Of a stretch of 34,226 nucleotides of DNA, positions 2 to 34,226 are shown piece after piece. Source of the stretch: a virus; the IMG/VR virus record IMGVR_UViG_3300045955_000038, positions 1 to 34,226 of that record. One strand, 5' to 3'. Below the pieces are notes generated by a model. The model did no database searches. It was given only the letters and a program-made list of their open reading frames with translations, and was not told the origin of the DNA. Position 1 is the first letter of the stretch, and each line of letters opens with the position of its first letter. Made by a program: the position numbers and the translations under genes.

Positions 2-28
2 TCGCGCTCGCACGAGGCCAAAAAATGA
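2..28 (+). CDS. 3' end of an upstream gene (partial)
   Basis: Reading from base 2, eight codons run into a TGA at 26-28 that overlaps the ATG of the next gene (ATGA at 25-28). The same overlap style joins nearly every gene downstream, so this is probably the tail of a gene that starts outside the window. Too little is present to say what it encodes. Confidence 0.4.
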   Translation, partial: SRSHEAKK

Positions 29-612
29 AAACTGAGCCCGGCGAAAAGTGGCCGCTCGATCAGCTCCGACCCTGGGATCTCAACCCGCGCCGCCACGACG
101 AGCGCAGCGTGGTCGCCATCGCGGAATCCTTGCGCGCGTTCGGGCAACAGCGCCCCGTGGTGATCCGCCAGGACGGAACGATCATCGCGGGCAACGGGAC
201 GTACGAAGGCGCCAAGCGCCTCGGATGGGCCGAGCTCGAGGTGGTCGTCTTCGATGGGACGGAGTCGCAAGCGAAGGGCTACGCGATCGCCGACAACCGA
301 ACGGCCGAGCTGTCGAAGTGGATTTACCAGGCGGTCGCCGAGGAGATCAAGGCGATTGATCCGTCCCACCTGGCCGCGCTGGGGTGGACGATCGACGAGC
401 GCGAGATCTTGCTGGCCGCGGCGTGGCCGGGATCGGCGCCGATCGAGACGGGCCACGGCAAGCACGCGCGCGTGACGCACGTCGAGGTGACGGACGAGCA
501 GCGCGGCGTGATCGACAAGGCGGTGGCGACGTTGGCGCAATCGCTCGGGCGCCGCTCGCGCGTCAAACCCGGGACGGCGCTGGTGATGATTGCCAAGGGC
601 GTCCAGCGGTGA
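25..612 (+). CDS. ParB-like N-terminal (ParB/Srx) domain protein, copy 1
   Basis: A 195-residue protein with a ParB/Srx-type domain in its first ~110 residues. The visible family signature is an IAESLRAFGQQRPVV helix-strand unit, then IIAGNGTYEGAKRLGW and ADNRTAEL, which resemble the nucleotide-binding core of ParB-like proteins. In phages such proteins are linked to CTP binding, DNA binding or nicking, but the exact role is unknown. The C-terminal part ends in a basic stretch rich in Arg and Lys. The ATG at 25 has a GAGG motif about 8 bases upstream, and the TGA overlaps the GTG start of the next gene, a paralog. It lacks the C-terminal DNA-binding and dimerisation regions of plasmid ParB, so partitioning is unlikely. 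Confidence 0.8.
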   Translation: MKTEPGEKWPLDQLRPWDLNPRRHDERSVVAIAESLRAFGQQRPVVIRQDGTIIAGNGTYEGAKRLGWAELEVVVFDGTESQAKGYAIADNRTAELSKWIYQAVAEEIKAIDPSHLAALGWTIDEREILLAAAWPGSAPIETGHGKHARVTHVEVTDEQRGVIDKAVATLAQSLGRRSRVKPGTALVMIAKGVQR

Positions 613-1220
613 ACGTGAACCCGGGGCTCGTCGATCTGCTGCGGCCGGTGAACGAGCTGACGCCCGATCCCCACCCGATCCGCGATCACCCGGACTCGCA
701 GATCAAGGCGATTGCCGAGAGCTTGTCCACATTCGGCCAACAGAAGCCCATTGTGGTGGATAACGAGGGCCACGTCCTGGCGGGCAACGGGACCTTGCTG
801 GCCGCCAAGCGCCTGGGGTGGGCCGAGATCGCGTGCCGGACGTTCGTCGGCACGCCGGACCAGGCGCGCGCGTTCCGCCTGGCGGACAATCGCACCGGGG
901 AGTTCTCGGAATGGGATCCCGCCCACCTCGACACCCTGGTGGCGGATCTGGACGGCGAAGACCGGGCCGCGATCGGGTTTACCGATCAGCAGCTCGTCGG
1001 GCTGCTCCAGCAGGGCGGGACGTGGCAACCCGAGGCCGTCCGGGACGGGGGGCTGGACAAGAAGGCGGGCCAGCTCGCGCTGACCGCGGGGGAATGGCGC
1101 AACCTGGAGCCCGTCCTGATCGCGGTGAAAGCGGCGCGCGGCGCCCCGGACGCGACCTGGGGCCAAGCGTTGACCTGGCTATGTGAAACCTGGCTGTCTG
1201 ACGACAAGGAGCCCCGATGA
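609..1220 (+). CDS. ParB-like N-terminal (ParB/Srx) domain protein, copy 2
   Basis: A 203-residue paralog of the preceding protein. It starts at GTG 609 within a GTGA overlap. The shared core is IAESLSTFGQQKPIVV, then VLAGNGTLLAAKRLGWAEI and LADNRTGEFSEW, matching copy 1 block by block. The C-terminal third is unrelated to copy 1 and ends in an acidic tail. An ATG-type start further upstream would overlap copy 1 extensively, so the GTG is preferred. The function is inferred only from the fold: a nucleotide-dependent DNA-binding or nuclease-like protein of the phage. Its place directly before the DNA-modification genes hints at a role in DNA metabolism, but this is not shown by the sequence. 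Confidence 0.8.
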   Translation: MNVNPGLVDLLRPVNELTPDPHPIRDHPDSQIKAIAESLSTFGQQKPIVVDNEGHVLAGNGTLLAAKRLGWAEIACRTFVGTPDQARAFRLADNRTGEFSEWDPAHLDTLVADLDGEDRAAIGFTDQQLVGLLQQGGTWQPEAVRDGGLDKKAGQLALTAGEWRNLEPVLIAVKAARGAPDATWGQALTWLCETWLSDDKEPR

Positions 1221-1426
1221 ATCAAGGCGAGCTGATCCCGCTATCTCCCGAAGAACGCGCGATGCGCGGGCCGATGCTCGCGCGGCTGACGCTCGAGCTG
1301 CTGGATATGCAGGCCGAGCACGCGGAAGAGAAAAAGGTCATGGCCGCGCGCGAGCTGGAGGCGCGGCAACGGATTCACAAGATCGCGCGCTCGATCCGCG
1401 ACGGCCGGAAGGCTGACGAACCGTGA
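1217..1426 (+). CDS. small charged helical protein, function unknown
   Basis: Starts at ATG 1217 overlapping the previous TGA and encodes 69 residues. The middle (about residues 20-60) is one long run rich in Glu, Lys, Arg and Ala with few helix breakers, probably a single amphipathic or coiled-coil helix. No catalytic motif or signal peptide is visible. It sits inside the overlapping operon between the ParB-like genes and the DNA-modification cassette. I do not recognise a family. Confidence 0.65.
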   Translation: MNQGELIPLSPEERAMRGPMLARLTLELLDMQAEHAEEKKVMAARELEARQRIHKIARSIRDGRKADEP

Positions 1427-1605
1427 CGTATCGGTGTCCGGCGTGCGCGGGCGCCTGGTCGCTCCATGCGCCGCCGACCCCAGAACAGTTGCAGATCATC
1501 GGCGCGCACATGGTCAAGCAGCATGGAGCGTGGAGCGCCATCGCCGACGCCGAGCTGGTCGACGAGTCGACGCACGCGCTTGAGCGGATCAAGCCCCGTG
1601 GATGA
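1423..1605 (+). CDS. small putative zinc-finger protein
   Basis: A 60-residue protein from GTG 1423 (GTGA overlap with the preceding gene). Near the N-terminus CPAC is followed by a helix containing two His residues (IIGAHMVKQH), giving a Cys2-His2-like arrangement suited to one zinc ion. Its TGA lies inside the start of the dpdA-like gene, so the two are probably translationally coupled. It could be a DNA-binding accessory to the modification cassette; that is inference from position alone. Confidence 0.55.
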   Translation: MTYRCPACAGAWSLHAPPTPEQLQIIGAHMVKQHGAWSAIADAELVDESTHALERIKPRG

Positions 1606-2473
1606 CGCGCCGACCGTCCGCCTGGCGGTGGTCGGCGGGGGCGGTGGATTGAACGAGGTGACGAAGCGCGCGCTGGAAGATCCGACGTTGCGCCTGGCGT
1701 GGTTCCACGACATTCCGGCGATCGACACGGCGCTGGAGCACCGAGCCGACAACGTCCCCGCGCTGCTCGTCTCGTTCTACTACCTGGCCGACTTCCTGAC
1801 GCAACGCAAAGACTACGTCTATCGCGATTGGGTGATGGACTCGGGCGCCTTCACCGCCAAGCAAATGCGCGTCGAGATCGACCGGGCGCGCTACATCGAA
1901 ACCTGTCAACGCTTGCTCGCGACGGATCCCAAGCTGGTCGAGGTGTACAGCCTCGACGTGATCGGGGACTGGCGCGCCTCCGTCCGCAACGTCGAGGCGA
2001 TGTGGGCCGCGGGCGTCCCCGCGATCCCCTGCTACCACGTCGGCGATCCGGAACCGCTGCTCAAGGATCTCGTCCGCGACTACGGCAAGGTGGCGCTCGG
2101 CGGCGCGGTGGGCTACAAGAATAAGCGGGCCTGGGCGCAGCAGTGCTTCGCGCGGGTCTGGCCCGCGAAGCTGCACGGGTTCGGGTTCGGCGAAGACCGG
2201 GACATCCTGGCGCTGCCGTGGCACTCGGTCGACGCGACGAACTGGGAGCTGGGGCCGTGTCAGTTCGGGCGGTGGCGCTCGTTCGGCGCGGCGCTGTCGG
2301 TTCGGGGATCGAACCAGAACCTTCGCCCGGAGATCGAGCGGTATCTGCGGGTGGAACAGCAGGCGCGGCGCCGCTGGGCCAAGGAGATGGCGCAGCTCGC
2401 GACGTTGGACGCGCCGACCGTGCGCCTGGTCATCGGATCGTCGCCGCGTCCGCTGCCGCCCCCGCGGGCGTGA
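1598..2473 (+). CDS. dpdA: DpdA-like DNA 7-deazaguanine transglycosylase (TGT-related)
   Basis: A 291-residue protein resembling phage DpdA, the DNA-acting relative of tRNA-guanine transglycosylase, which exchanges guanine in DNA for a 7-deazaguanine base. Visible landmarks follow the TGT barrel: WVMDSGAF with Asp ~81, YSLDVIGD with Asp ~120 (the two candidate catalytic/binding acids), a glycine-rich VALGGAVG segment, then KLHGFGFG and a SVDATNW strand near the C-terminus. The tRNA-type CxCxxC zinc site of bacterial TGT was not seen, which fits a phage DNA enzyme. It starts at GTG 1598 inside the previous gene's end and is followed with overlap by queD, queE and folE, which make its substrate. 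That context strongly supports the call; which base it inserts is not determined. Confidence 0.82.
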   Translation: MDDAPTVRLAVVGGGGGLNEVTKRALEDPTLRLAWFHDIPAIDTALEHRADNVPALLVSFYYLADFLTQRKDYVYRDWVMDSGAFTAKQMRVEIDRARYIETCQRLLATDPKLVEVYSLDVIGDWRASVRNVEAMWAAGVPAIPCYHVGDPEPLLKDLVRDYGKVALGGAVGYKNKRAWAQQCFARVWPAKLHGFGFGEDRDILALPWHSVDATNWELGPCQFGRWRSFGAALSVRGSNQNLRPEIERYLRVEQQARRRWAKEMAQLATLDAPTVRLVIGSSPRPLPPPRA

Positions 2474-2598
2474 CGGAGCCCGAGGCCGACGTCCAGCGGC
2501 GACGGGACCACATCGCGGGCGTGCGGTTCTACCTGGACGTCTCACGCATGATTGCGCGGATGCACGCTCGGACGCTGGCGGACGCGCGGGAGGCCTCG
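2470..2598 (+). other. 43-codon open stretch before queD: extension or separate small peptide
   Basis: A GTG at 2470 forms a GTGA overlap with the dpdA stop and opens a stop-free stretch in the same frame as queD. It encodes about 43 charged, helix-prone residues not found in ordinary QueD enzymes. Either QueD has an N-terminal extension here (172 residues in total), or this segment is mainly a spacer and QueD starts at the ATG at 2599, which has a good GGGAGG ribosome site. The overlap style of the operon favours translation from 2470. Confidence 0.45.
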
Positions 2599-2988
2599 AT
2601 GATCAGGACGGCCAAGCAGTTCCACCTGGAGAAGCGCATTCGCTTCGAGGCGTCCCATCAGCTCGAGGGGCACGACGGCAAGTGTGCGCGCCTGCACGGC
2701 CACTCGTGGCAGGCGGTCATCATCTGCGAAGGGGACGCCGTCTTCGCGTCCGGCCCGAAGATGGGGATGCTCGTCGACTACTCCGACCTGTCGCGCGCCG
2801 CGAAGCCCCTGCTGGAAAACTTCCTGGACCATCACCACCTCAACGACACCTTGCAGCTCAAGCAACCGACGAGCGAGCTGGTGGCGATGTGGATCTACGC
2901 GGAACTGATGAAGCTCGTCCCCGGGCTCACGGCGATCCGCGTCGAGGAAACCTGCACGTCCTCGTGCGAATACCGCCCCGCCCTGTGA
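2599..2988 (+). CDS. queD: 6-carboxy-5,6,7,8-tetrahydropterin synthase (QueD)
   Basis: QueD converts dihydroneopterin triphosphate to 6-carboxytetrahydropterin, the second step of 7-deazaguanine synthesis. From ATG 2599 the protein has 129 residues, the usual family size. Zinc ligands are visible as His20 (FEASH) and His33/His35 in the CARLHGH motif, whose Cys29 is the catalytic nucleophile. LDHHHLND supplies the conserved His region and VEETCTSSCEY the C-terminal substrate-binding Glu. The CxxxHGH spacing is that of QueD. GGGAGG at 2588-2593 precedes this ATG by five bases; an in-frame GTG at 2470 would add 43 residues. It overlaps queE (GTGA) and lies between dpdA and queE. Confidence 0.9.
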   Translation: MIRTAKQFHLEKRIRFEASHQLEGHDGKCARLHGHSWQAVIICEGDAVFASGPKMGMLVDYSDLSRAAKPLLENFLDHHHLNDTLQLKQPTSELVAMWIYAELMKLVPGLTAIRVEETCTSSCEYRPAL

Positions 2989-3689
2989 AGGCGCCCAGCG
3001 CCAGTCTCGTCCGGACCCCGCAGGGCTACGGCGCCGTCGTCCCGCCCTTCACCGCCTGGCCGCTGAACGCGGACAATCGCGTGCGCTACGACCTGGCGGC
3101 GCTCTATCCCACGATCCAAGGCGAAGGGCTCAACGCGGGGCGCGCGATGACGATCGTCCGGCTCCAGGGCTGTCCGGTCGGCTGCATCTGGTGTGACACG
3201 CCAGAGAGCTGGGACCCGTCCCGTCCCCAGCTCGCGCAGCAGCGCGGGGACGCGATCGCGCAGACCGTCGACAATCATGGCCTCGGCTGGGCACTCATCA
3301 CTGGAGGAGAACCGACGTGGCACGACCTGACTTGCCTGACCGTGATGTGTCGCCGACTCGGCATCAAAACGGCGCTGGAGACGTCGGGGACGATGCCGAT
3401 CTCCGGGGAATGGGACTGGGTGACGCTGAGCCCGAAACCGCGGGGCGCGCTCCCGCTGCTGCCGGTCTGGATCTCGATCGCGAGCGAGCTGAAGTGGGTC
3501 GTCGGCAGCGTCCGGGATCTCGAGCGATTGCGTGCGTTCCTGACGGAGTACGACCGGCCGGATCTGCCGGTCCTGATTCAACCGATCTCGGCCAAACCCC
3601 ACACCACCCGACTCTGCGTCGAAGCGGTGATGGACGAGCCCCGATATCGCCTGTCCCTGCAAACGCACAAGATTCTGGACATCGCGTGA
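2985..3689 (+). CDS. queE: 7-carboxy-7-deazaguanine synthase (QueE), radical SAM enzyme
   Basis: QueE rearranges 6-carboxytetrahydropterin to 7-carboxy-7-deazaguanine (CDG) with S-adenosylmethionine and a [4Fe-4S] cluster. The 234-residue protein has the cluster motif CPVGCIWC (Cys63, 67, 70), preceded by YPTIQGEG, a typical QueE entry, and followed by the SAM-binding ITGGEP segment near residue 106. LETSGT and WVTLSPKP are further QueE-like blocks. The GTG at 2985 overlaps the queD stop; the first ~35 residues form an extension before the barrel. Its TGA overlaps the GTG of folE. All residues expected for activity appear present. Confidence 0.9.
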   Translation: MKAPSASLVRTPQGYGAVVPPFTAWPLNADNRVRYDLAALYPTIQGEGLNAGRAMTIVRLQGCPVGCIWCDTPESWDPSRPQLAQQRGDAIAQTVDNHGLGWALITGGEPTWHDLTCLTVMCRRLGIKTALETSGTMPISGEWDWVTLSPKPRGALPLLPVWISIASELKWVVGSVRDLERLRAFLTEYDRPDLPVLIQPISAKPHTTRLCVEAVMDEPRYRLSLQTHKILDIA

Positions 3690-4243
3690 TCGACACGACG
3701 GCGGAGACGATGATTCGCCGCTTCCTGCTCGCGATCGGCGAAGACCCGCGGCGCCCGGGGCTGGTGGAGACACCCGGCCGCGTCGTCCGCGCCTGGCGCG
3801 AGCTGCTGGCGGGCTACGGTCCCCTGCCGCGGATGACGTCGTTTGAGACGAACGTCGACGAAATGGTGATCGTCCGCGGGATCGAGGCGACGTCGATCTG
3901 CGAACATCACCTCCTGCCGTTCACCTGTCGGGTGACGGTCGGCTACTTGCCGGCCGGTCGCGTCCTGGGGCTCTCCAAGATCCCGCGCCTGGTCGAGCAC
4001 TACGCGCGCCGCCTCCAGCTCCAGGAACGCCTGACGCACGAGATCGCGAACGCGATGATCGAGGCCGTCCAGCCCGCGGGCGTCGGCGTGGTGATCACCG
4101 GGAACCATCTGTGCGCGCGCGCCCGCGGGATCAAGGCCACGCAGACCAGCGCCGTCACCTCCGCGATGCTGGGGACGTTTCGCTCCAACGCCTCCGCGCG
4201 CGCCGAGTTCCTGGCGCTGGTCCGGCGTGATCACGAGGAGTAA
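3686..4243 (+). CDS. folE: GTP cyclohydrolase I (FolE)
   Basis: GTP cyclohydrolase I opens GTP to dihydroneopterin triphosphate and formate, the entry step for both folate and 7-deazaguanine synthesis. The 185-residue protein holds the zinc ligands in SICEHHLLPF (Cys and second His) and in HLCARARG (Cys), and the family blocks GLSKIPRLVEHYARRLQLQERLT-type helix and GVGVVITGNH. It starts at GTG 3686 in a GTGA overlap with queE. A phage copy next to queD, queE and dpdA most likely raises the precursor pool for DNA base replacement rather than serving folate synthesis. Confidence 0.92.
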   Translation: MIDTTAETMIRRFLLAIGEDPRRPGLVETPGRVVRAWRELLAGYGPLPRMTSFETNVDEMVIVRGIEATSICEHHLLPFTCRVTVGYLPAGRVLGLSKIPRLVEHYARRLQLQERLTHEIANAMIEAVQPAGVGVVITGNHLCARARGIKATQTSAVTSAMLGTFRSNASARAEFLALVRRDHEE

Positions 4244-4761
4244 TGCCTGGCACGTTCCGCAGTGGACGTCACCGCATCCCGACGCCGCTCAAGCTCATCA
4301 AGGGTTCGCGCGTCCGGGGCCGTCAGCATGAACCGCAGTACGACCCCGGCGAGCCCGCGTGTCCCCCGGAAGTGTCGGCGGATCCCGTCGCCGCGGAACA
4401 CTGGAAGCGGCTGACGCCGCGCCTGATGGCCGCGGGCGTCCTGAACGTCGGCCATAGCGAAGCCCTCGCGGGGCTCTGCATCACCCTGGCGGATCTGACG
4501 CGCGTGCGCGATCAGCTCCGGGCGATGAACTACCAGCAGCTCATCGTCGACGAGCAGCGGGACAGTAAGACCGGGACGGTCGTCCGGCGCCGCATTCGCG
4601 AGAATCCCCTGATCCGCCGCAGCGAGCGGTTGAACCAGCTTGCGACCAAGCAGCTCGGCGAGTTCGGGTTGACGCCGGTCACCCAAAGCAAAGTCAACGC
4701 GGCGCCCACGGGCGAACCCGATGCGTTCGAATCGTTCTTGGGGCAAGGCCGACCCCGATGA
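4243..4761 (+). CDS. terminase small subunit (P27-like)
   Basis: A 172-residue protein at the start of the packaging genes. Features of P27-type small terminases are the basic N-terminus with RIPTPLKLIKGS, then a PPEVSADPVAAEHWKRL helix, the NVGHSEALAGLCITLADL segment and ENPLIRRSERLNQLATKQLGEFGLTP at the C-terminus. The small subunit recognises the packaging site on phage DNA and recruits the large subunit. Its ATG at 4243 overlaps the folE stop and its own stop overlaps the start of the large subunit. Confidence 0.87.
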   Translation: MPGTFRSGRHRIPTPLKLIKGSRVRGRQHEPQYDPGEPACPPEVSADPVAAEHWKRLTPRLMAAGVLNVGHSEALAGLCITLADLTRVRDQLRAMNYQQLIVDEQRDSKTGTVVRRRIRENPLIRRSERLNQLATKQLGEFGLTPVTQSKVNAAPTGEPDAFESFLGQGRPR

Positions 4762-6437
4762 GGAAGGCGTCCGACCCCATCACGACCTGGGCGCGCCGCG
4801 TCCAGGCGGGCAAGGTCGTCGCCGGACCCCACGTCCGCGCCGCGTGCGCGCGCCATCTGGCCGACCTCGAGCGCCAGGTCCAGCTCGGGATCGTCTGGAA
4901 GCCCCAGACCGCGCGCTGGGCCGTCGCGTTCTTCGCTCACCTGATGCACACCCGGGGCGAGTGGGCGGGCAAGCCCTTCGTCCTGGAACCGTGGCAGGCG
5001 TTCATCATCGGATCGCTCTGGGGCTGGCGGGACGCGACCACGGGCTACCGACGATTCCGAGAAGCCTACGTCGAAGTCCCGCGCAAGAACGGCAAGAGCT
5101 CCATCGCGGCCGGGGTGGCGCTGCTGCTGGCGTTCTTCGACGAGGAGCCCGGGGCGCGCGTCTACTGCGCCGCGACGAAGCGCGACCAGGCCAAGCTCGT
5201 GTGGGATCACGCCAAGGAGATCGCGGGACGCACGCCCGCGTTAGCCAAGCGGATCCACCTGGGCGCGCACACCCTGTCGATCGCCGCCGCGTCCCAAAAG
5301 TTGGAACCGCTCGGCGCCGATACGGACGTCCTCGACGGCCTGGACGTCCACGGCGCGATCGTCGACGAGCTGCACGCGCACCGGACCAGCGCGATGGTCG
5401 ACATCCTGAAGACCGCGACCGTCGCGCGCCGTCAGCCGCTGGTGTTCTACATCACGACCGCGGGCAAGGAACGGAAGACCATCTGCGGCGCGTTCCACGA
5501 CTACGCGCTGCAAGTCCTGACGAGCGCGGACGGGCTCGTCGGCGTCGAGTGGTTTTCGTTCATCGCCTGCGGGGACGACAAAGACGACTGGCGCAAGGAG
5601 TCGACCTGGCGCAAGGCCAATCCCAATTACGGTGTGAGCGTGAGCGCCGCGGCGCTGAAAAAAGACGCCGCGAAGGCCGAGCAGATCCCAGTGAATCAAT
5701 CCGCGTTCCGGCGCTTGCATCTCAACGAGTGGTTGCAGCCCGATAACCGCGCGATCGGGCTCCAGCAGTGGGCCGCGGCCGGACGGGCGGACGTCACGCT
5801 CGACGCCCTGGCCGGACGGCGGTGTTTCGCGGGGCTCGACCTGTCCGCGCGCCTCGACGTGACGGCGCTGGTCCTGGTGTTCGACGACCCGGACGGCGGG
5901 ATCGCGCTGCTGCCCTACTTCTTCATCCCCGAAGACAACATTGCCGCGCGCGTCCAGCGCGACCGCGGGGCGCCGTTCGACGCGTGGGTGGCGGACGGGC
6001 TCGTCGAGGCGACACCCGGCAACCTGATCGACTACCAGGCGATCCGGCGCAAGCTCGTCGAGCTGGGCGCGCTCGTCCAGGTCGACACGGTCGCCACCGA
6101 CCCGTGGAACGCCGCCGCGCTGGGCACCGACATTCGCGCGGACGGGTTCGATCTCGTCGAGGTCCCCCAGCGGATGACGACGTTGTCCGAGCCGACCAAG
6201 CATCTGCTGGCGCTGCTGGAGAGCGGCAAGCTGCGACACCCGAACCACCCGTGCCTGGACTGGATGGCCTCCAACCTGGCGCTATTGATCGACGCCCGGG
6301 GGAACCAGATGCCGGACAAGGGACGATCGACCGGGAGGATCGACGGCCTGGTGGCCGCGATCACCGCGCTGTCCCGCCTGATGCTCGCGCCGACCGGCGA
6401 GTCCGCGTATGCGGATCACGGCCTGGTGACGGTGTGA
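4758..6437 (+). CDS. terminase large subunit (HK97-like TerL)
   Basis: A 559-residue packaging motor with an N-terminal ATPase and a C-terminal nuclease. The Walker A region is VPRKNGKSS (about residue 105-113), the Walker B is AIVDELHA (about residue 200), and FYITTAGKE is the likely coupling motif. The RNase H-like nuclease half contains GLDLSARLDVTAL (about residue 360) and ATDPWNA (about residue 447), with acidic metal-binding positions, and ends in GNQMPDKGRSTGRIDGLVA, a common end of this family. The length is typical for HK97/lambdoid-type TerL. It overlaps the small subunit by four bases. Confidence 0.93.
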   Translation: MRKASDPITTWARRVQAGKVVAGPHVRAACARHLADLERQVQLGIVWKPQTARWAVAFFAHLMHTRGEWAGKPFVLEPWQAFIIGSLWGWRDATTGYRRFREAYVEVPRKNGKSSIAAGVALLLAFFDEEPGARVYCAATKRDQAKLVWDHAKEIAGRTPALAKRIHLGAHTLSIAAASQKLEPLGADTDVLDGLDVHGAIVDELHAHRTSAMVDILKTATVARRQPLVFYITTAGKERKTICGAFHDYALQVLTSADGLVGVEWFSFIACGDDKDDWRKESTWRKANPNYGVSVSAAALKKDAAKAEQIPVNQSAFRRLHLNEWLQPDNRAIGLQQWAAAGRADVTLDALAGRRCFAGLDLSARLDVTALVLVFDDPDGGIALLPYFFIPEDNIAARVQRDRGAPFDAWVADGLVEATPGNLIDYQAIRRKLVELGALVQVDTVATDPWNAAALGTDIRADGFDLVEVPQRMTTLSEPTKHLLALLESGKLRHPNHPCLDWMASNLALLIDARGNQMPDKGRSTGRIDGLVAAITALSRLMLAPTGESAYADHGLVTV

Positions 6438-6709: not shown

Positions 6710-7933
6710 ATGTGGGACTGGTGGTCGCGCTGGTGGGCCGCGTTCGTCAGCGCCGTGCGCGGCCAGCTCGATGATCCCGACCCCTCGACCGTCTGGGCGT
6801 GGTCTTCCCAACCCTCCATCGGCGGCTACGACCGGATCTACCGCTGTCAGCCCCACGTCTGGACGGTCGTCAACTTCATCGCCATCAATCTCGGCCAGAT
6901 CGGGATCAAGGTGTACCGGCGCCGCTCGAATGACGATCGCGTCGAGGTCCACGATCATCCCCTGGCCGTCCTGCTCCGTCAGCCCAACCCGGCGACGACG
7001 CGCTACCGCTTCATCACCGAGCTGGTCACGGATTTCTGCGTCGACGGGGTCGCCTACGCGCTGAAACTCCATCCCCCGGACGGGGGCCTGGAGCTCTACC
7101 GGATCGACCCGGCGACGATCACCCCATCGGGCGACGTCATCCCGCGCGAGTTCGTGTGGCGCCCCGTGTCGGGCGAGCACACCATCACCCTCCCGCCGAG
7201 CGAAGTCCTGTATCTGCGCCAGCCGCGGATGATCTCGCCGCTGGAACCGCTCCGGACGCTGCTGATGGAAGACCAGGCGGGGACGGAATACCGCTCGCGC
7301 TTCTGGCGCAACTTCGCGCGCCTGGGCGGCGTGATCCATCGTCCGGCCGGGGCGTCACGCTGGACGCCCGACCAGCGAAAGATGTTCCGCAAGCAGTGGC
7401 GCCAGTACCAAGGCCCCGAGGGATCGGGCAAGACCGTCGTCCTGGAAGACGGGATGACCTACAGCCCGATCTCCGCGACGGCCGAGCAATCGCAGTACGT
7501 CCAGAGCCGCAAGCTGACGCGCGAAGAAGTCTCGGCGGCGTTTCACGTCCCGCCCGCGCTCGTCGGCATCGTCGAGTCGCAGGGCTACGGCTCGATCCGC
7601 GAACAGCACAAGGCGCTCTACCAGGACACCCTGGGTCCCTACGTCGCGATGCTGGAGGGCGAATTCCAGCTCCAGCTCCTGCCCGAGTTCTCGGACAGCG
7701 AAGAGGTCTACGTGGAATTCAACATCGATGAAAAGCTGCAAGGCTCGTTCGAGGATTCCGTCCTGGCGCTCGCGTCGTCGACCGGAACGCCCTACGTCAG
7801 CGTCAACGAAGCGCGCGCGCGCTTGAACCTGCCCAAGATCGCGGACCCCGCCTATGACAAGCCCGTCCTGCGCCTGGACACGGCGCCCGGGCAGATGCAG
7901 CGGACCGCCCAACGGAACGGAGTACCGGCGTGA
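6710..7933 (+). CDS. portal protein (HK97 family)
   Basis: A 407-residue portal, the dodecameric ring at the capsid vertex through which DNA enters and leaves. Recognisable blocks are QPHVWTVVNFIAINLGQI near the N-terminus, DHPLAVLLRQPNP, the tunnel-region LKLHPPDGGLELYRIDP, and SRKLTREEVSAAFHVPPALVG followed by GYGSIREQHKALYQDTLGP, highly typical of HK97-type portals. It starts at ATG 6710 after the repeat-bearing gap. Its stop overlaps the GTG start of the first capsid gene. The length is normal for the family. Confidence 0.93.
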   Translation: MWDWWSRWWAAFVSAVRGQLDDPDPSTVWAWSSQPSIGGYDRIYRCQPHVWTVVNFIAINLGQIGIKVYRRRSNDDRVEVHDHPLAVLLRQPNPATTRYRFITELVTDFCVDGVAYALKLHPPDGGLELYRIDPATITPSGDVIPREFVWRPVSGEHTITLPPSEVLYLRQPRMISPLEPLRTLLMEDQAGTEYRSRFWRNFARLGGVIHRPAGASRWTPDQRKMFRKQWRQYQGPEGSGKTVVLEDGMTYSPISATAEQSQYVQSRKLTREEVSAAFHVPPALVGIVESQGYGSIREQHKALYQDTLGPYVAMLEGEFQLQLLPEFSDSEEVYVEFNIDEKLQGSFEDSVLALASSTGTPYVSVNEARARLNLPKIADPAYDKPVLRLDTAPGQMQRTAQRNGVPA

Positions 7934-8919
7934 AGACTGACGAGCTGCTGGACCAGATCCTCGATCCCACCGCCCGGCTCGATCCGCGACGGGGCGGGAT
8001 CCTGCCGCTATTCGGTCCCCAGGCGCTCCAGCTCGGGCAGGGGTTCGTCGACGCCGACGCCGTGCGCGCGGCGATCGCCACCCGGAGCGGGCGCTGGCAC
8101 TCCCCCGCCGTCGAGCTCGAGGCGCTGGTCGGCGTCACGTCCCCGCCGATCCCGCCCGGGGTGGCCGTCCCGCCCCCGATCGTCAGCCCCTTCGCCTACG
8201 CCGCAGGGCGCTTCGCGCAAGGCACGACGAGCGCGGGCGCGATCCCGTACCTGCGCGAGTCCGCGCGCGTCAACGCCGCGACCTACGTCGCCGCGGGCGC
8301 CGCGAAGCCAGAGAGCGATAACGATTTCACGCTGGCGACTCAGCCCGTCGTCAAACTGGCGCACTGGCTGGCGGTCCCCGACGAGTTTCTGGACGACGCG
8401 CCCGGGCTGGCGACGTATCTGGACACGAACCTGACGGTCGGGCTCCTCAGCGTCCTCGATCACGAGGCGTTACAGGGCGACGGCGCGGCCGGACATCTCC
8501 AGGGGCTCATCGGCCTGGCGGGCAAGACCCCACCCGTCAACGCCACGGGCGGCGCGACCGGCAACGTGTCCGCGATCATGACCGCGATTGCGAACGTCTG
8601 GACAGGCTCCCGCCGTCGTCCGGACACCGTCGTGATCAATCCCGCGACCTACGCGCTGGTCGCCCCCGGCGTCCCGGTCGCGCCGCTGACGGCGCCGATC
8701 GAGTTCGTCTTCACGCCGGAGATGCCGACCGGACAGGCGCTCGTCGGCGCGTTCGGGACGGGCGGGATGCTGTTCCGTCGCGGGGGCGTCGTCGTCCAGG
8801 CGACCAACAGCCACGCCGACTATTTCCGCAAGAACCTCACCGCGATCCGCGCCGAGCTGCGCGTGGCCCTGGTCTACTTCGTCCCCGCGGCGTTCTGCCT
8901 GGTCACGGGGATCGCGTGA
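7930..8919 (+). CDS. HK97-fold major capsid protein paralog, lacking a delta domain
   Basis: A 329-residue HK97-fold capsid protein starting at GTG 7930. From about residue 23 it aligns with the second capsid protein at 9719-10981: GGILPLFGPQALQLG against GGVLPLINGDRLSLG, then PPGVAVPPPIV, RFAQGTTSAGAIPYL, AAKPES, VPDEFLDD and a C-terminal LFRRGGVVVQATN plus IRAELRVALVYFVPAAFCLVTG. It lacks the long charged coiled-coil scaffold (delta) domain of its paralog, so it begins almost where a processed capsid protein would. It may form a minor or vertex subunit, or be a diverged second shell protein. It is encoded between portal and protease. Confidence 0.88.
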   Translation: MKTDELLDQILDPTARLDPRRGGILPLFGPQALQLGQGFVDADAVRAAIATRSGRWHSPAVELEALVGVTSPPIPPGVAVPPPIVSPFAYAAGRFAQGTTSAGAIPYLRESARVNAATYVAAGAAKPESDNDFTLATQPVVKLAHWLAVPDEFLDDAPGLATYLDTNLTVGLLSVLDHEALQGDGAAGHLQGLIGLAGKTPPVNATGGATGNVSAIMTAIANVWTGSRRRPDTVVINPATYALVAPGVPVAPLTAPIEFVFTPEMPTGQALVGAFGTGGMLFRRGGVVVQATNSHADYFRKNLTAIRAELRVALVYFVPAAFCLVTGIA

Positions 8920-9718: not shown

Positions 9719-10981
9719 ATGGTCAAAACGATCCTGGACGAGATGCGAGAGGCCCACGAGCGGATGCGCGCGCTGGTCGCGACCGCGGAGGGGGACGATC
9801 GGGATCTGACGCCCGACGAAGACAAGGAGTTCAAGGCGCTCGACGAGCGGCTCAAGACGTTGGACGCCAAGCGCAAGCGCGCGGACGGCTTCGCCAGCGC
9901 GCTGAAGACCGTCGAGGGCTACTTCGCCCCCGGCAACGGTAACGGCGCCGCGAAACCGTCCCCCGTCGCGACCCGAGACACCGCCGTGCGCTCGATGATG
10001 GGCGGCGTCCTGCCGCTGATCAATGGCGACCGGCTCTCGCTCGGGTCGAAGTTCGTCGAGAACGAACAGATCCGGACGCTGCTGGGCCAGCCGCGGCAAG
10101 GCCAGTGGACGTCCCCGCCCATCGAGATCGATGCCGCGGTCACGATCACGCCGACGACGGCGATTCCGCCCGGCGTCATCGTGGTCCCACCGCCGCCCGT
10201 CTACCCGTGGGACCTGGTGTCGACGCGGTTCGGGCAAGGGACGACCGAAGCGGGCTCGATCCCGTATCTGCAAGAGACGAGCTTCACCAACGCGGCCGAC
10301 TATGTCGCGGTCGGCGCGGCCAAGCCCGAAAGCGCCAAGGTGTTCACGCTGGCGTCGGCCACGCTGCTGAAGATCGCGCACATCATCAAGGTGCCGGACG
10401 AGTTCCTGGACGATATCCCGGCGCTGCGCGCGTACATCGACGCCAACATGGTCGGCGGTCTGATCGAGAAGCTGGAAACCGAGGTCGTCGGTGGTGTGGG
10501 CGGCGCGGGCAAGATCCAAGGCCTGCTCACGCTCCCCGGCAAGCACGCCGACGTCGACTACACCGCGGGACCGTACATCCAGACGATCGCCGCCGCCTGG
10601 GCCGCGATCTGGACGGCGTCGAAGTATCGGCCCGAGACGATCGTCCTGTCCCCGACGACCTACCAGACGGTGACGATGCAGAGCAATTCGCAGGGCGCGC
10701 CCTACTTCCCGAATCCCTGGTCCCCGGGGACGCAACCGCTCTACGGGATGACGCCCGTGATCTCGCCGCAAGTCCCGGATGGGACCGCGATCATCGGCAA
10801 TTTCCCGGTCGGCGGCATGTTGTTCCGCAAGGGTGGGATCTCGCTCCAGGCGACGAACACCGACGTGGACGACTTCCAGAAGAACATCACCACCATCCGC
10901 GCCGAGATGCGGGTGGCCCTGGTGTACTGGGTTCCCGGCGCGTTCGGCCTGGTGACGGGACTGGAGCCCGCGGGTCCGTAG
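9719..10981 (+). CDS. major capsid protein (HK97 family) with N-terminal delta domain
   Basis: A 420-residue HK97-type capsid precursor. Residues 1-75 are a charged coiled coil (RMRALVATAEGDDRDLTPDE and following), the delta scaffold domain normally removed by the prohead protease. A Gly/Asn/Ala-rich linker follows at residues ~76-85, a plausible cleavage region. The HK97 core then runs from about residue 95, with QGTTEAGSIPYLQET (E-loop region), VPDEFLDDIPAL and IRAEMRVALVYWVPGAFGLVTG at the end. AGAGGAG at 9706-9712 is the strongest ribosome site in this region, suiting a highly made protein. It is a clear paralog of the protein at 7930-8919. Confidence 0.93.
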   Translation: MVKTILDEMREAHERMRALVATAEGDDRDLTPDEDKEFKALDERLKTLDAKRKRADGFASALKTVEGYFAPGNGNGAAKPSPVATRDTAVRSMMGGVLPLINGDRLSLGSKFVENEQIRTLLGQPRQGQWTSPPIEIDAAVTITPTTAIPPGVIVVPPPPVYPWDLVSTRFGQGTTEAGSIPYLQETSFTNAADYVAVGAAKPESAKVFTLASATLLKIAHIIKVPDEFLDDIPALRAYIDANMVGGLIEKLETEVVGGVGGAGKIQGLLTLPGKHADVDYTAGPYIQTIAAAWAAIWTASKYRPETIVLSPTTYQTVTMQSNSQGAPYFPNPWSPGTQPLYGMTPVISPQVPDGTAIIGNFPVGGMLFRKGGISLQATNTDVDDFQKNITTIRAEMRVALVYWVPGAFGLVTGLEPAGP

Positions 10982-20200: not shown

Positions 20201-21785
20201 CGTCGTCCCGGTCACGACGCCCCCGGGGCCGGGGCTCACGAACACCGTGACCTTCCCCACGCCGATGGTGCCGCCGCTCCCGGAGCCCGGCGACCTGGCG
20301 CTCCTGGGCATCGTGGGCCGCGAATCGGTCCCGGGCATCGTCGTGATGATCCGCCCCGGACCGGACCTGTCGGCGGTGCTCACCGTGGTCGATGACGCGC
20401 CCGCCGTCCGGGTCGCCGATCAGTTACCGATTCCGGCGTGGGATCCCCAGATCACGCTGCCGATTGCGACGGAGCAAAACCCGCCGACGCCCATCATCGA
20501 GACGGTCACGTCGGACGAGTCGGTGTTGGTCCGCGCGCTCGACGGCTCGCTGCAAAGCGCCATCGTCGTGACGCTCCGCTACCAGGCCACGAGCAACGTG
20601 CGCGCCGACTACCTGGAGGCGCGGATCAAGCGGTCCGATTCCACGGCGCCCTACGACATCCTGCCGCACCTGGTCGCGGGGGCGACGCGCGTGCAGTTCG
20701 CGGGCATGGTCGAGGATGGCGTCGCCTACGACTTTCGGCTCCGGACCGTCAACCGCAACGGTCCCGCCTCGCCCTGGGCGGAAGTCCTCAACTACGTCGT
20801 CATCGGCAAGACCTCGGCCCCGCCCACGCCGAGCAATCTGCGGATCAATGGCCCGGTCAACAATCGCCTGGAGTGGGACTACCCCGCGCCGCCGCCCGAC
20901 CTGGACGGGTTCCTGGTGCGCGGCCTCCCTGGCAGCACGGCAAACTGGCCGAGCGCGATCACGCTCCACGTCGGCGTCGTCTCCGCGAGCCCGTTCGTGC
21001 TGCCGGCGATGTTCGGGCAGTGGACCTTGCTCGTCGCGGCCGTCGATACCAGCGGCAACGAGAGCACAGCGGCGAGCCTGACGTACACGTTCGAGGACGC
21101 CCGCATCCACAACCAAGTGGCGAGCTTCGACTACAAGGCCGCGAGCTGGCCCGGGACGATCACGAACGGCACGATCCTCGGCGGCAACCTCGCCGCGGCG
21201 GGCGTGCCGACCGTGTTCTGGGGCGCGGACACCGCGAGCTTCTGGACGACGCCGGACACGGCGCTGTTCTGGGACGGTACCTACGAGCAGATGACCTACG
21301 AGTTCTCGTACACCGTCGCCGGGACGAGCGTCGGCGCGCGCCTGCTCTTCCAGACGACGATGACCGCCGAGTCCTGGACGATGGAGTACGAAGTCACCCC
21401 GGGCAACTGGATCCCCTGGCCCGGGACGCTCGAAAATCTCGCGGCGGGCACCTACCAGTTCCGGATCATCACCTACGCGTCCGCCCAGCAAGCGATCCTG
21501 TCGCGCCTCACGGCGGTCGTCGACGCCGATGACCTGATCACGCTCTACGGCAACGTCGCGATCGCGGCGACGACCGGCACGCGCCTGACGCTCTCGGCGA
21601 CCTATCGCGCGATCACCCAGGTGACCGCGACGGTCCTGGCCTCGGGCGGTGAAACGGCCACGAGCTGCGTCGTCGCGGATCAGCAAAACACGGCGGGCGC
21701 GAACAACGGACCCCTCATCCGCTGCTACGACCAGGCGGGCGCGGTCGTGGCGGGCCACGTCAACGCCACGGTGCGAGGCTACTGA
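17238..21785 (+). CDS. tail tip / host specificity protein J with lectin-like and Fn3 domains
   Basis: The largest protein, 1515 residues from GTG 17238, is a J-type tip protein that recognises the host. Residues 1-75 look like the small gpI-type domain with VYVNGDLIYPEWYHVV, followed by a hydrophobic segment (88-127) common in these fusions. Residues 155-260 hold the J core start (PRVYGCHKIYPPYAAMPF). A LamG/concanavalin-like domain lies at about 418-724 (YWRLGE...AFDSSG...LDDVALYP), interrupted at about 604-693 by an Arg-rich, then aromatic and Gly-rich stretch. The J core resumes at about 740-1050, then two Fn3-like domains (about 1085-1290) and a beta-rich end. Its stop overlaps the next fibre gene. 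Confidence 0.88.
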   Translation: MIELMDAPIQILDRPFGTERRELAVQTGRTIAQLIEDAGIPPGTPTRVYVNGDLIYPEWYHVVRPKRGVHVLIRVVPRGGASRTQKNIGTLLTGLLLVTIGAVLAPYGGATLILGGTSLMLTAMLNWMAGNKKTPGGMKSLAGVLSNQEPESPTLSISGQTNAARPYAVVPRVYGCHKIYPPYAAMPFTETVGADQYLRLLFCVGMGPTEVSQLKIGDTALENFQAVETEIRTGAAGEPPLTLYTTDVNEEPLAILLLAGVGQIRTSAAAAVELSVDVAFPEGLVQFGGESGAQKLATTVSIDVEYRLVGATLWTTAPGSPIVTTDARQSFTRNGLRWVVASGQYDVRLTRTTADSGDPVLKNTSVWSALRSYGAIPPVNLDGLALVAMRIRATDQLNGVVDSFNCLACSLHLDFTSYPAVVEEDGPLGYWRLGEVAGATTAFDSSGHDHAGVYRGDPLLGAPGLLAGDRDTAMVADGIDDGVDTFDGMATYDMGGGSFTVECLIKPATLSGTRGIVRKSNGSEFAGGAAGWALEQNGSLLMFSRGAATVSASILAGQRYHVIATYSIVTGLLQLWLNGNPVASNAAAGTAAYADTFNLEFAADRAAVRRRLPPRAEPRDVSTSVDYFTPHYFIAAGYFTPHYFTFEITIPTVGVGTSVAPFFFAVPPVVDPGGGAGGGIPPFLFAVASDGSVGGRFAGTLDDVALYPVALSDERIGVHYSAVQAAGGWVMRKTSNPASHYREVLQGPSNARPIPDERLDLAEFEAWHRECSAGQRSHNRVIDFPITVYQLLREIAACGRGTPTMNDLKFAVVRDLTQTTPRQIFTPRNARNFHGRRVIPDALHALKVTFIDPDSNWQQVERIAYRDGYGPVAEPGLLAATRFETVDLPGCTDPDMAWRYGRYQLASAQLRPEAYEFETDVENLACRRGDLIQIAYDVTEWGLAWGRVKSVETNASGLAVSVTLDEAVPLSTGQVYAMRFRFADLGSVVVPVTTPPGPGLTNTVTFPTPMVPPLPEPGDLALLGIVGRESVPGIVVMIRPGPDLSAVLTVVDDAPAVRVADQLPIPAWDPQITLPIATEQNPPTPIIETVTSDESVLVRALDGSLQSAIVVTLRYQATSNVRADYLEARIKRSDSTAPYDILPHLVAGATRVQFAGMVEDGVAYDFRLRTVNRNGPASPWAEVLNYVVIGKTSAPPTPSNLRINGPVNNRLEWDYPAPPPDLDGFLVRGLPGSTANWPSAITLHVGVVSASPFVLPAMFGQWTLLVAAVDTSGNESTAASLTYTFEDARIHNQVASFDYKAASWPGTITNGTILGGNLAAAGVPTVFWGADTASFWTTPDTALFWDGTYEQMTYEFSYTVAGTSVGARLLFQTTMTAESWTMEYEVTPGNWIPWPGTLENLAAGTYQFRIITYASAQQAILSRLTAVVDADDLITLYGNVAIAATTGTRLTLSATYRAITQVTATVLASGGETATSCVVADQQNTAGANNGPLIRCYDQAGAVVAGHVNATVRGY

Positions 21786-32385: not shown

Positions 32386-32612
32386 TGGCGGGGTTTATGT
32401 CGGTCCCCGCGATGACGTCGCGGACGCTGGCCCATCGGCTCCTGGAGCTCCAGCGCGAGCTGGATGCCCATCCCACGCCGCAGCTCTGGGACGAATACTA
32501 CCGGGCGGGCGATCTGTGGGAACGGATGCAGGGACACATCAAGCGGCCGAAACCGGAGGAGCCCCGGATCCCGGGGACCGCGATGGGTCCCCGGGTGGGC
32601 GCGAAGCGTTAG
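32385..32612 (+). CDS. small charged protein next to integrase
   Basis: A 75-residue protein from ATG 32385, which overlaps the regulator's TGA. It has a helix RTLAHRLLELQRELDAHPTP, a Trp/Tyr-rich middle (LWDEYYRAGDLWERMQGHI) and a Pro/Lys/Arg-rich tail. Size and place next to the integrase would suit an excisionase or accessory factor, but no HTH is evident. Its stop overlaps the integrase stop (convergent genes). Confidence 0.55.
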   Translation: MAGFMSVPAMTSRTLAHRLLELQRELDAHPTPQLWDEYYRAGDLWERMQGHIKRPKPEEPRIPGTAMGPRVGAKR

Positions 32613-33814
32613 GCGGTGCGGGCGGACTTGCCGCCGCGCAGCGCGCGCAGCGGGGACGCGGCCGGGGCCGCGGGCTTGGCCGCATCGAGGTACTTCATGA
32701 CGGTCGACGGCTGGACCTGGGCGTACCGCTTCACCATCGCGGGGGACCGCCAGTCCCCCATCGCCATCAAGGTGGCCTCGTTGGCGCCGTTGTTAATCGC
32801 GGTCGTCGGGGCGTGGTGGCGCAGATCGTGAAAGTGGAAGTCCTGCAGGCCGCACATCCGCGCGACCCCGCGCCAGCAGCGCGAGATGTGCACGCGGCTG
32901 TAGGGACGCCCGTTGCGCGGATTGGCGAACAGGTACTCGTGCTGGGGCTCGCGCGCCAGCGCGCGCTCGACGATCGCCCAGGCATCCGCGGAGAAGTTGA
33001 CCAGGCGCGTCCGGGGACCGCGGCGGACGGCCTTGGTCTTGGGCAGCTTGGCCGTCCGCGTCGTCCGGTCGATGTACTCGCGCTTGATCGTCGCGCCCTC
33101 GGTCAACCGCATCACGCCCAGGCACACCAGCTCGGACAGGTCGCGCAGGATCGGCCCCCACTCCCGCTCGAGCGCCGGGAAGACCTGGTGGTACTCCGCG
33201 GGGGCGAGCTGCCGGACGCGGAGATTGTCTTCCTCGGGGAACAGCGCCGCGTCCATCCGGAAGTCCGGGCGGACGCGCTTCATCATCGCGCGCCACTCGC
33301 GCAGCTCGCGCCCGACCGTCCCGGGCTTGCACGCGTCCACATGGATGGGCTGGCCCGCTTCGTTGACGGCGTCGTGGGCCTCCTCGCGCGACTCGCGGTA
33401 GGCGCGGATCGTCTCATCGTCGACGTCCGCCAGCGCGCCCCGGCCGATCTCGGGGGCGCAGCGCGCCAGGAACTTCACGATCCGATCGGGGACGCCCGCC
33501 TCTTTCTTGTGGGCCTCCAGATCGAGGATCCGCTGCCGGAACCCGTCCAGGACCGTCGCCTCGGGGCGCGCGTCCAGGCGTCCCGTCCCCTCCGTCTCGA
33601 TCACCTGACCGGCAAGCTGGCGCTCGAACAGATCGCGGACGCGCACCGCTTCGACGAGGTCGTTGTCGACCAGCTTCGTCAACCGCTTGTCGCGTCCGCC
33701 CACGCGCACGCGCAGCTTGAACTCGCCGCTGACCGGCAGGTGGATCCGGGTGATCCCGCGGTCCACGTAGCCGAGCTTGTTGTCCGTCTTCGTCTTGATC
33801 GTCCTGGTGGCCAT
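32609..33814 (-). CDS. int: tyrosine-family site-specific integrase
   Basis: A 401-residue tyrosine recombinase on the - strand; ATG 33814-33812 has GGGGGA upstream. The N-terminal ~65 residues (TKTDNKLGYVDRGITRIHLP, then VRVGGRDKRL) are a probable arm-binding domain, and residues ~70-200 a core-binding domain. The catalytic domain has Arg236 (MRLTEG), His329/Arg332 (HDLRHH), Trp355 in the usual His/Trp position (GDWRS) and the nucleophile Tyr364 (VKRYAQ). It would insert the phage into the host tRNA-Glu gene by attP-attB recombination. An upstream in-frame extension through the att site exists but is not used: it lacks family sequence. The length is typical. Confidence 0.93.
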   Translation of the reverse strand: MATRTIKTKTDNKLGYVDRGITRIHLPVSGEFKLRVRVGGRDKRLTKLVDNDLVEAVRVRDLFERQLAGQVIETEGTGRLDARPEATVLDGFRQRILDLEAHKKEAGVPDRIVKFLARCAPEIGRGALADVDDETIRAYRESREEAHDAVNEAGQPIHVDACKPGTVGRELREWRAMMKRVRPDFRMDAALFPEEDNLRVRQLAPAEYHQVFPALEREWGPILRDLSELVCLGVMRLTEGATIKREYIDRTTRTAKLPKTKAVRRGPRTRLVNFSADAWAIVERALAREPQHEYLFANPRNGRPYSRVHISRCWRGVARMCGLQDFHFHDLRHHAPTTAINNGANEATLMAMGDWRSPAMVKRYAQVQPSTVMKYLDAAKPAAPAASPLRALRGGKSARTA

Positions 33815-33840
33815 CAGCGTCCCCCTTGTCCTGGATCCCC

Positions 33841-33890
33841 GTTGTCCACGGGTGTCCCTATTGTCCACGGAACGGGCGCCGTTGTCCACG
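33841..33890 (+). repeat. integrase arm-type sites, left arm (three copies)
   Basis: GTTGTCCACG at 33841-33850, TTGTCCACG at 33861-33869 and GTTGTCCACG at 33881-33890, spaced about 20 bases (two helical turns). GGGTGTCCC at 33850-33858 follows the first. The repeats are probably binding sites for the integrase N-terminal domain. Confidence 0.7.
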
Positions 33891-33928
33891 GGGTGGGGCG
33901 GGTGGTGGTGGTAACTACCTGGTTTTGT

Positions 33929-33972
33929 TGGTGGCCCCAACGGGATTCGAACCCGTGTTTCAGCCTTGAGAG
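33929..33972 (-). other. attP: attP core: 3' part of a tRNA-Glu (CTC) gene
   Basis: Read on the - strand this is the 3' part of tRNA-Glu: anticodon loop CTCTCAA (anticodon CTC), stem 3' strand GGCTG, variable loop AAAC, T-stem and loop ACGGG-TTCGAAT-CCCGT, acceptor strand TGGGGCC, discriminator A and CCA. The 5' half is missing: the bases that should pair with GGCTG do not. The match beginning at the anticodon loop, about 100 bases from the integrase start, marks the attachment core. Phage sequence lies on both sides, so this is attP rather than an integrated junction. Confidence 0.85.
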
Positions 33973-34022
33973 GTATGGTACCCGCGCAAAAACCCGCGTA
34001 ATCAGCGGGGCTCCGAGGCGCC

Positions 34023-34053
34023 GTTGTCCACGCGGCGCCGTCCGTTGTCCACG
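34023..34053 (+). repeat. integrase arm-type sites, right arm (two copies)
   Basis: GTTGTCCACG at 34023-34032 and 34044-34053, 21 bases apart and in the same orientation as the left-arm copies. GGGTGTCCC follows at 34059-34067, mirroring 33850-33858. Copies on both sides of the tRNA fragment are the expected layout of attP. Confidence 0.7.
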
Positions 34054-34067
34054 GCGTAGGGTGTCCC

Positions 34068-34226
34068 GGGGACGTGACGGGGCCAAAACTAGTTTTGCCC
34101 ACCCCTGCGACGACCCGCCCACCCGCCCGATCGCCCCCAGATTCGTCACCACGGCGCGCAGGATCGGGATCCTGGGGTGAGTCCCCCGGTGTCGACGAAC
34201 CCCTGGAGTCCCGAGGTCGTCAACCT
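34068..34226. other. non-coding flank of attP with a 14-bp palindrome
   Basis: No gene can be supported here. CAAAACTAGTTTTG (34084-34097) is a perfect palindrome, extended by imperfect GG/CC flanks. It is the only A/T-rich patch in this stretch and could be a recombination-accessory or regulatory site; it has no T run that would make it a terminator. Confidence 0.4.

What the first reader, a model, noticed from the sequence alone, without database searches (positions are those of the whole stretch)
1598..4243. Phage 7-deazaguanine DNA-modification cassette without QueC
Seen: a DpdA/TGT-like gene, queD, queE and folE, joined by start-stop overlaps and with catalytic motifs present (DSGAF; CxxxHGH; CxxxCxxC; SICEHH/HLC). 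Known: phages with DpdA plus this pathway replace guanine in their DNA by 7-deazaguanines and resist restriction. No QueC, QueF or glutamine-amidotransferase gene was found in the window. Inference: either CDG itself is inserted, or a host QueC (or a phage gene outside the window) supplies preQ0. The small zinc-finger gene at 1423 and the ParB-like pair in the same operon may be accessory parts of the system.
Basis: partly seen in the sequence, partly recalled or inferred. Interest (0 to 1): 0.85.

Follow-up and report, generated by a model that had tools for sequence, protein, structure and literature searches.

The report
Phage guanine-swapping operon without QueC
A soil-type phage carries the genes to make a modified guanine and swap it into its DNA, but lacks the usual last enzyme (QueC), so it probably inserts the acidic intermediate CDG; related phages have lost or replaced QueC many times, which points to DNA bases that can be looked for.

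Summary
Confirmed: window 1598-4243 holds dpdA, queD, queE and folE, chained by start-stop overlaps between a ParB-like pair and the terminase genes. The DpdA model is a TGT fold (PDB matches all TGTs, Z 16.6) with every residue invariant in 59 relatives. QueC is absent from the 34-kb record. Relatives carry queC inside this operon; in L001 it stands exactly where the window has none. Of 91 untruncated relatives 72 are complete, and of 13 lacking one gene 11 lack queC; on the DpdA tree the loss recurs (10 changes; single clade rejected, p 9e-5). Selective loss of QueC argues that CDG is the product, rather than that the host supplies preQ0. Best reading: DpdA inserts CDG (dCDG). Base chemistry is untested; the record is incomplete and the host unknown. 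QueC-less cassettes are known (Mycobacterium phage Bipper, Hutinet 2019) and, as I recall, dCDG was reported in 2023, so this is a variant of a known kind. Newer is the wider pattern: three other families (nitrilase-type hydrolase, SAM methyltransferase, QueD-like T-fold protein) occur in QueC-less cassettes, never together and in only 3 of 132 cassettes with QueC; the window has none.

The parts
25..612 (+). ParB-N-domain protein 1
   Evidence: phrog_620 3.6e-35; a ParB-like gene stands upstream of dpdA in 42 of 42 testable relatives
609..1220 (+). ParB-N-domain protein 2
   Evidence: phrog_620 1.7e-34
1217..1426 (+). small orphan gene in the operon
   Evidence: 4-base overlaps on both sides; no relative in any fetched locus
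1423..1605 (+). small orphan gene, CxxC...H...H zinc-finger-like
   Evidence: no convincing family or relative
1598..2473 (+). DpdA, DNA guanine transglycosylase
   Evidence: phrog_887; AF2 model pLDDT 85.8, TGT fold Z 16.6; D81-S82-G83, D120, H147, H193, D212 invariant in 59 relatives
2470..2601 (+). the place where queC stands in the syntenic relative L001; here only an N-terminal extension of QueD
2470..2988 (+). QueD, 6-carboxytetrahydropterin synthase
   Evidence: Pfam PTPS 5.6e-31; NCBIfam QueD 1.2e-24
2985..3689 (+). QueE, radical-SAM CDG synthase
   Evidence: phrog_2076, NCBIfam TIGR04322 1.4e-41
3686..4243 (+). FolE, GTP cyclohydrolase I
   Evidence: Pfam 2e-63, above NCBIfam cut-offs
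4243..4761 (+). terminase small subunit, next gene of the run
   Evidence: Pfam Terminase_4 4.4e-12
4758..6437 (+). terminase large subunit
   Evidence: phrog_9 2.2e-150
32609..34102 (-). tyrosine integrase
   Evidence: Pfam PF00589 1.5e-18
33931..33972 (-). probable attP core: 3' half of a tRNA-Glu-like gene
   Evidence: sequence read directly, flanked by five TTGTCCACG copies

Best explanation
The operon makes 7-carboxy-7-deazaguanine (CDG) from GTP (FolE, then QueD, then QueE) and stops there; DpdA exchanges guanines in the phage DNA for CDG, giving dCDG, an acidic base expected to block restriction enzymes. The ParB-like proteins probably help DpdA on DNA. Shown here: the genes, the TGT fold and conserved active-site residues, the absence of queC from the record, and recurrent selective absence of queC in relatives. 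Inferred: that DpdA acts on DNA, that CDG is the base inserted, and that it protects.
For: Gene identities. TGT fold with all invariant residues kept. In L001 the order is ParB-DpdA-QueC-QueD-QueE-FolE-terminase, and the window has the same order minus QueC. In 73 queC-bearing complete cassettes queC lies inside the DpdA-FolE span in 68 and within 1.2 kb of it in the other 5, so it would be expected in the window if present. Long QueC-less relatives (42-93 kb) and the 77.8-kb Bipper genome have no QueC elsewhere in the record. In 91 distinct untruncated DpdA-seeded cassettes 11 lack only QueC, 2 only QueD, none only QueE or FolE (binomial p 1e-5, or 1e-4 with near relatives merged): host rescue would not single out QueC. 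Absence is recurrent on the DpdA tree (10 changes; one clade rejected, p-AU 8.9e-5). Bipper has the same gene order without QueC and its host M. smegmatis is reported to lack the preQ0 pathway (PMC6884629).
Against: The record is linear and probably lacks several kb left of the cassette (relative L101 has about 10 kb there), so a displaced queC or a tailoring gene cannot be excluded. The host is unknown and could have QueC. No residue in DpdA marks a CDG-specific pocket (best p 7.8e-4 in 4512 tests). Phage 9g DpdA expressed alone in E. coli put preQ0, not CDG, into DNA (PMC6884629), so some DpdAs discriminate. Many QueC-less relatives carry another enzyme in or near the slot, so bare CDG need not be the end product in general.
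Confidence: 0.55

Rival explanations
1. The host supplies QueC: the phage boosts CDG, the host converts it to preQ0, and DpdA inserts preQ0 (dPreQ0).
For: Most of the DpdA relatives encode QueC and so probably use preQ0; 9g DpdA inserts preQ0 made by E. coli (PMC6884629).
Against: A host with QueC would normally also have QueD, QueE and FolE, yet these are kept while QueC alone is missing (11 of 13 single absences). Bipper lives in a host reported to lack the pathway. The window's host is unknown.
Confidence: 0.2
2. The phage does encode QueC, or a CDG-tailoring enzyme, in the part of the genome missing from this record.
For: Linear record; relative L101 has about 10 kb upstream of its cassette; five relatives have queC just outside the core span.
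Against: All queC genes detected in complete cassettes lie within 1.2 kb of the span (flanks searched were at most 8-10 kb), and no long QueC-less record has one elsewhere. None of the three alternative families is in the window or in the other empty-slot records.
Confidence: 0.15
3. The genes feed host tRNA queuosine or folate rather than DNA modification.
For: FolE, QueD and QueE are shared with those pathways (general knowledge).
Against: The transglycosylase groups with phage DpdAs (phrog_887, BFVD hits), has no QueF partner, and is conserved next to a ParB-like protein and often the terminase genes.
Confidence: 0.05

Closest known systems
Mycobacterium phage Bipper (KU728633), the QueC-less phage of Hutinet et al. 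2019 (PMC6884629)
   Same: ParB-like protein, small gene, DpdA, QueD, QueE, FolE, then terminase, without QueC in the whole 77.8-kb genome; the 2019 paper already noted it could carry CDG
   Different: Bipper has a predicted T-fold protein (gp4) between DpdA and QueD; the window has nothing there. The DpdAs are about 31% identical.
[quoted passage not shown]
   Same: DpdA, FolE, QueD, QueE
   Different: They encode QueC and carry dPreQ0 (PMC6884629)
Uncultured phage relatives such as L001, L012, L101
   Same: DpdA 51-60% identical, same genes beside ParB and terminase (order partly rearranged in L101); L101 is the nearest kin by terminase and portal (43%, 46%)
   Different: They have queC
dCDG as a phage base (Cui et al. 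2023, doi 10.1093/nar/gkad657)
   Same: Would be the same base
   Different: Known to me from memory only; the paper was not held, so which phages and enzymes it concerned was not checked

Membership tests
Phage DpdA-type 7-deazaguanine DNA modification | TGT-fold transglycosylase of the phage DpdA family with its conserved residues | tested here: met
Phage DpdA-type 7-deazaguanine DNA modification | 7-deazaguanine in virion DNA | not testable with these tools
   no sample; needs nucleoside mass spectrometry
dPreQ0 cassette (Rosebush/CAjan type) | FolE, QueD and QueE encoded | tested here: met
dPreQ0 cassette (Rosebush/CAjan type) | QueC encoded | tested here: not met
   the record is incomplete
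dG+ or dPreQ1 cassette (9g, Dp-1 type) | QueF/QueF-L or Gat-QueC encoded | tested here: not met
dG+ or dPreQ1 cassette (9g, Dp-1 type) | ArcS encoded | not tested
   no search with an ArcS model was made
Bipper-type QueC-less cassette | ParB-DpdA-QueD-QueE-FolE-terminase order without QueC | tested here: met
Bipper-type QueC-less cassette | T-fold protein (gp4 family) in the queC slot | tested here: not met

The most novel reading that the evidence does not exclude
The queC position of phage 7-deazaguanine cassettes is an exchange point acting on CDG: QueC (to preQ0), a nitrilase-superfamily hydrolase, a SAM methyltransferase or a QueD-like T-fold enzyme can occupy it, each giving a different DNA base, some not yet described; the window is the empty form that uses CDG itself.
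Probability: 0.4. Interest if true: 0.75.

Novelty: new variant of a known kind. Interest (0 to 1): 0.5.

Why it matters
If DpdA takes CDG directly, a three-gene pathway plus one transglycosylase is enough to put a negatively charged base into DNA, the smallest self-contained version of this anti-restriction strategy. The recurrent absence and replacement of QueC names specific enzymes and phages, including the isolated phage Bipper, in which new DNA bases can be looked for.

Tried and rejected
Looked for a CDG-specific residue pattern in DpdA: none survives multiple testing. Looked for the host: the DpdA scan of 84,980 species genomes gave one 3.9-kb contig binned as Chloroflexi, itself queC-positive, and one distant hit, so no host could be named. 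A profile search of solved-structure sequences with the DpdA alignment found nothing; only the fold comparison did. Profile comparison of the Bipper gp4 family with QueD was not significant, although its predicted fold is a T-fold with QueD/PTPS at the top (Z 10-12). A first de-duplication of cassettes (counts) merged unrelated rows and was replaced. The QueF-like hits in the window are the FolE gene. Megablast against phages: no match. The key 2023 paper on dCDG and a 2024 review were not held.

Full report
What is there. The window is one linear virus record of 34,226 bases. Its first 6.4 kb is a single run of overlapping genes: two ParB-like proteins, two small orphans, DpdA, QueD, QueE, FolE, terminase small and large subunits. 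PHROGs and Pfam identify the four genes named in the finding well beyond chance; NCBIfam agrees for FolE above its cut-off and names QueD and QueE below theirs. DpdA is not seen by Pfam or NCBIfam, but it matches the phage family phrog_887, and its model (pLDDT 85.8) matches TGTs: all 50 rows of the refined PDB comparison are TGTs, Z about 16.5 over 230 residues. Foldseek's own top rows are the TGT-like CBASS protein Cap10 and TGTs, with other TIM barrels behind. All residues invariant in 59 relatives are kept, among them D81-S82-G83, D120, H147 and D212; by motif position, and from general knowledge of TGTs, these fit the base-binding Asp, the second pocket Asp, the His typical of DpdA and the nucleophile.

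QueC. No QueC is found in the record, nor by a broader profile built from the relatives. The significance comes from relatives. Scans of viral contigs gave 117 loci with related DpdA. The usual order in the near relatives is ParB-DpdA-QueC-QueD-QueE-FolE-terminase; L001 shows it with QueC exactly between DpdA and QueD, where the window has only a 132-base extension of the QueD frame. In 73 cassettes with all five genes, QueC is inside the span in 68 and at most 1.2 kb outside in 5.

Recurrent, selective absence. On a tree of 61 DpdAs, QueC-less members are scattered among QueC-bearing ones: window next to L007 (moderate support, 82/74), L090/L091 with L089, L088 with L092, L095/L096/L111 with L037/L093. 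Ten changes of state are needed and a single QueC-less clade is rejected (p-AU 8.9e-5). Of 91 distinct untruncated DpdA-seeded cassettes 72 are complete, 11 lack only QueC, 2 only QueD, none only QueE or FolE (p 1e-5, or 1e-4 after merging near relatives). A host able to replace QueC would be able to replace the others too, so this favours a use for CDG itself. Whole-record searches of the longer QueC-less relatives found no QueC elsewhere. The tree cannot tell loss from gain by itself; loss is inferred from the majority state and shared position.

What sits in the slot instead. Gene families shared by QueC-less cassettes were followed by new scans: a nitrilase-superfamily protein (Pfam CN_hydrolase in two of three members tested; the Glu, Lys and Cys that fit the triad are invariant), a SAM methyltransferase and the Bipper gp4 family. 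In 132 distinct cassettes these occur without QueC 9 of 9, 20 of 23 and 12 of 12 times, never together (p 8e-5, 9e-8, 3e-6; part of the set was found by searching for these families, so the counts are not frequencies in nature, and relatedness is not corrected for). Some lie beside the slot rather than in it. The gp4 family has a predicted T-fold (pLDDT 88.5) whose best matches are QueD/PTPS, dihydroneopterin aldolase, QueF-like and FolE structures (Z 9-12). The window, L090/L091, L027, L028, L095, L111 and L112 have none of the three (for most of these the whole record was also searched, which had no positive control of their own). One of the three could be the CDG decarboxylase DpdL that I recall from Cui et al. 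2023; the paper was not held, so none is claimed as new.

Accessory parts. The orphans at 1217 and 1423 have no relatives in any locus.

Lifestyle and completeness. A tyrosine integrase stands beside the 3' half of a tRNA-Glu-like gene flanked by five TTGTCCACG copies, so the phage is probably temperate; only 4 of 27 records of this DpdA group (window and Bipper among them) carry an integrase. Comparison with L101 suggests that several kb of early region left of the ParB-like genes are missing.

Comparison with the known. Hutinet et al. 2019 (PMC6884629) placed Bipper, lacking only QueC, among the predicted dPreQ0/dADG phages and noted it might carry CDG; they also report that M. smegmatis lacks the preQ0 pathway and that DpdA is essential for insertion in phage CAjan. 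The window thus belongs to a known kind; what differs is the empty slot, the DpdA subgroup (at best 34% identical over 59% to deposited phages) and the demonstration that QueC absence is recurrent and selective. Verdict: real, a variant of a known kind, with CDG insertion the best but untested mechanism.

Noticed in passing
L057 6240-7274, L097 8756-9790, L063 6964-7956, L130-L142: Nitrilase-superfamily hydrolase with an apparently intact Glu-Lys-Cys triad, found only in QueC-less 7-deazaguanine cassettes (17 loci, no QueC near any).
   Followed up: partly
L003 2047-2472 (Bipper gp4), L096 6742-7137, L195-L206: Unknown family of about 130 residues, predicted T-fold close to QueD, in or beside the queC slot of 12 QueC-less cassettes; candidate CDG-processing enzyme.
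   Followed up: partly
L026 8747-9571, L088 1192-2004, L060 4212-5120, L143-L194: SAM methyltransferase family tied to 7-deazaguanine cassettes, mostly without QueC; possible methylation of CDG.
   Followed up: partly
window 1613-1627, 1685-1699, 2417-2431 and relatives: The peptide TVRLA recurs up to four times in the N- and C-terminal tails of this DpdA group (65 copies against 7 expected by shuffling); meaning unknown.
   Followed up: partly
window 32609-34102 and 33842-34053: Integrase beside a tRNA-Glu-like 3' half with five TTGTCCACG copies: probable attP with arm sites.
   Followed up: partly
window 7930-8919 and 9719-10981: Two major-capsid-like genes, 45% identical, on either side of the head protease gene.
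   Followed up: partly
window 2985-3689: QueE is of the E. coli type and its best deposited matches are Salmonella records (37%); possible separate origin from the other cassette genes.
   Followed up: no
window 10042-10134 and 20886-20976 (-): ARAGORN tRNA-Gly calls lie inside capsid and tail genes on the other strand and look spurious.
   Followed up: no
L026, L032, L105, L138, L139, L198, L199: Two DpdA paralogues side by side in several cassettes (three in L190).
   Followed up: no
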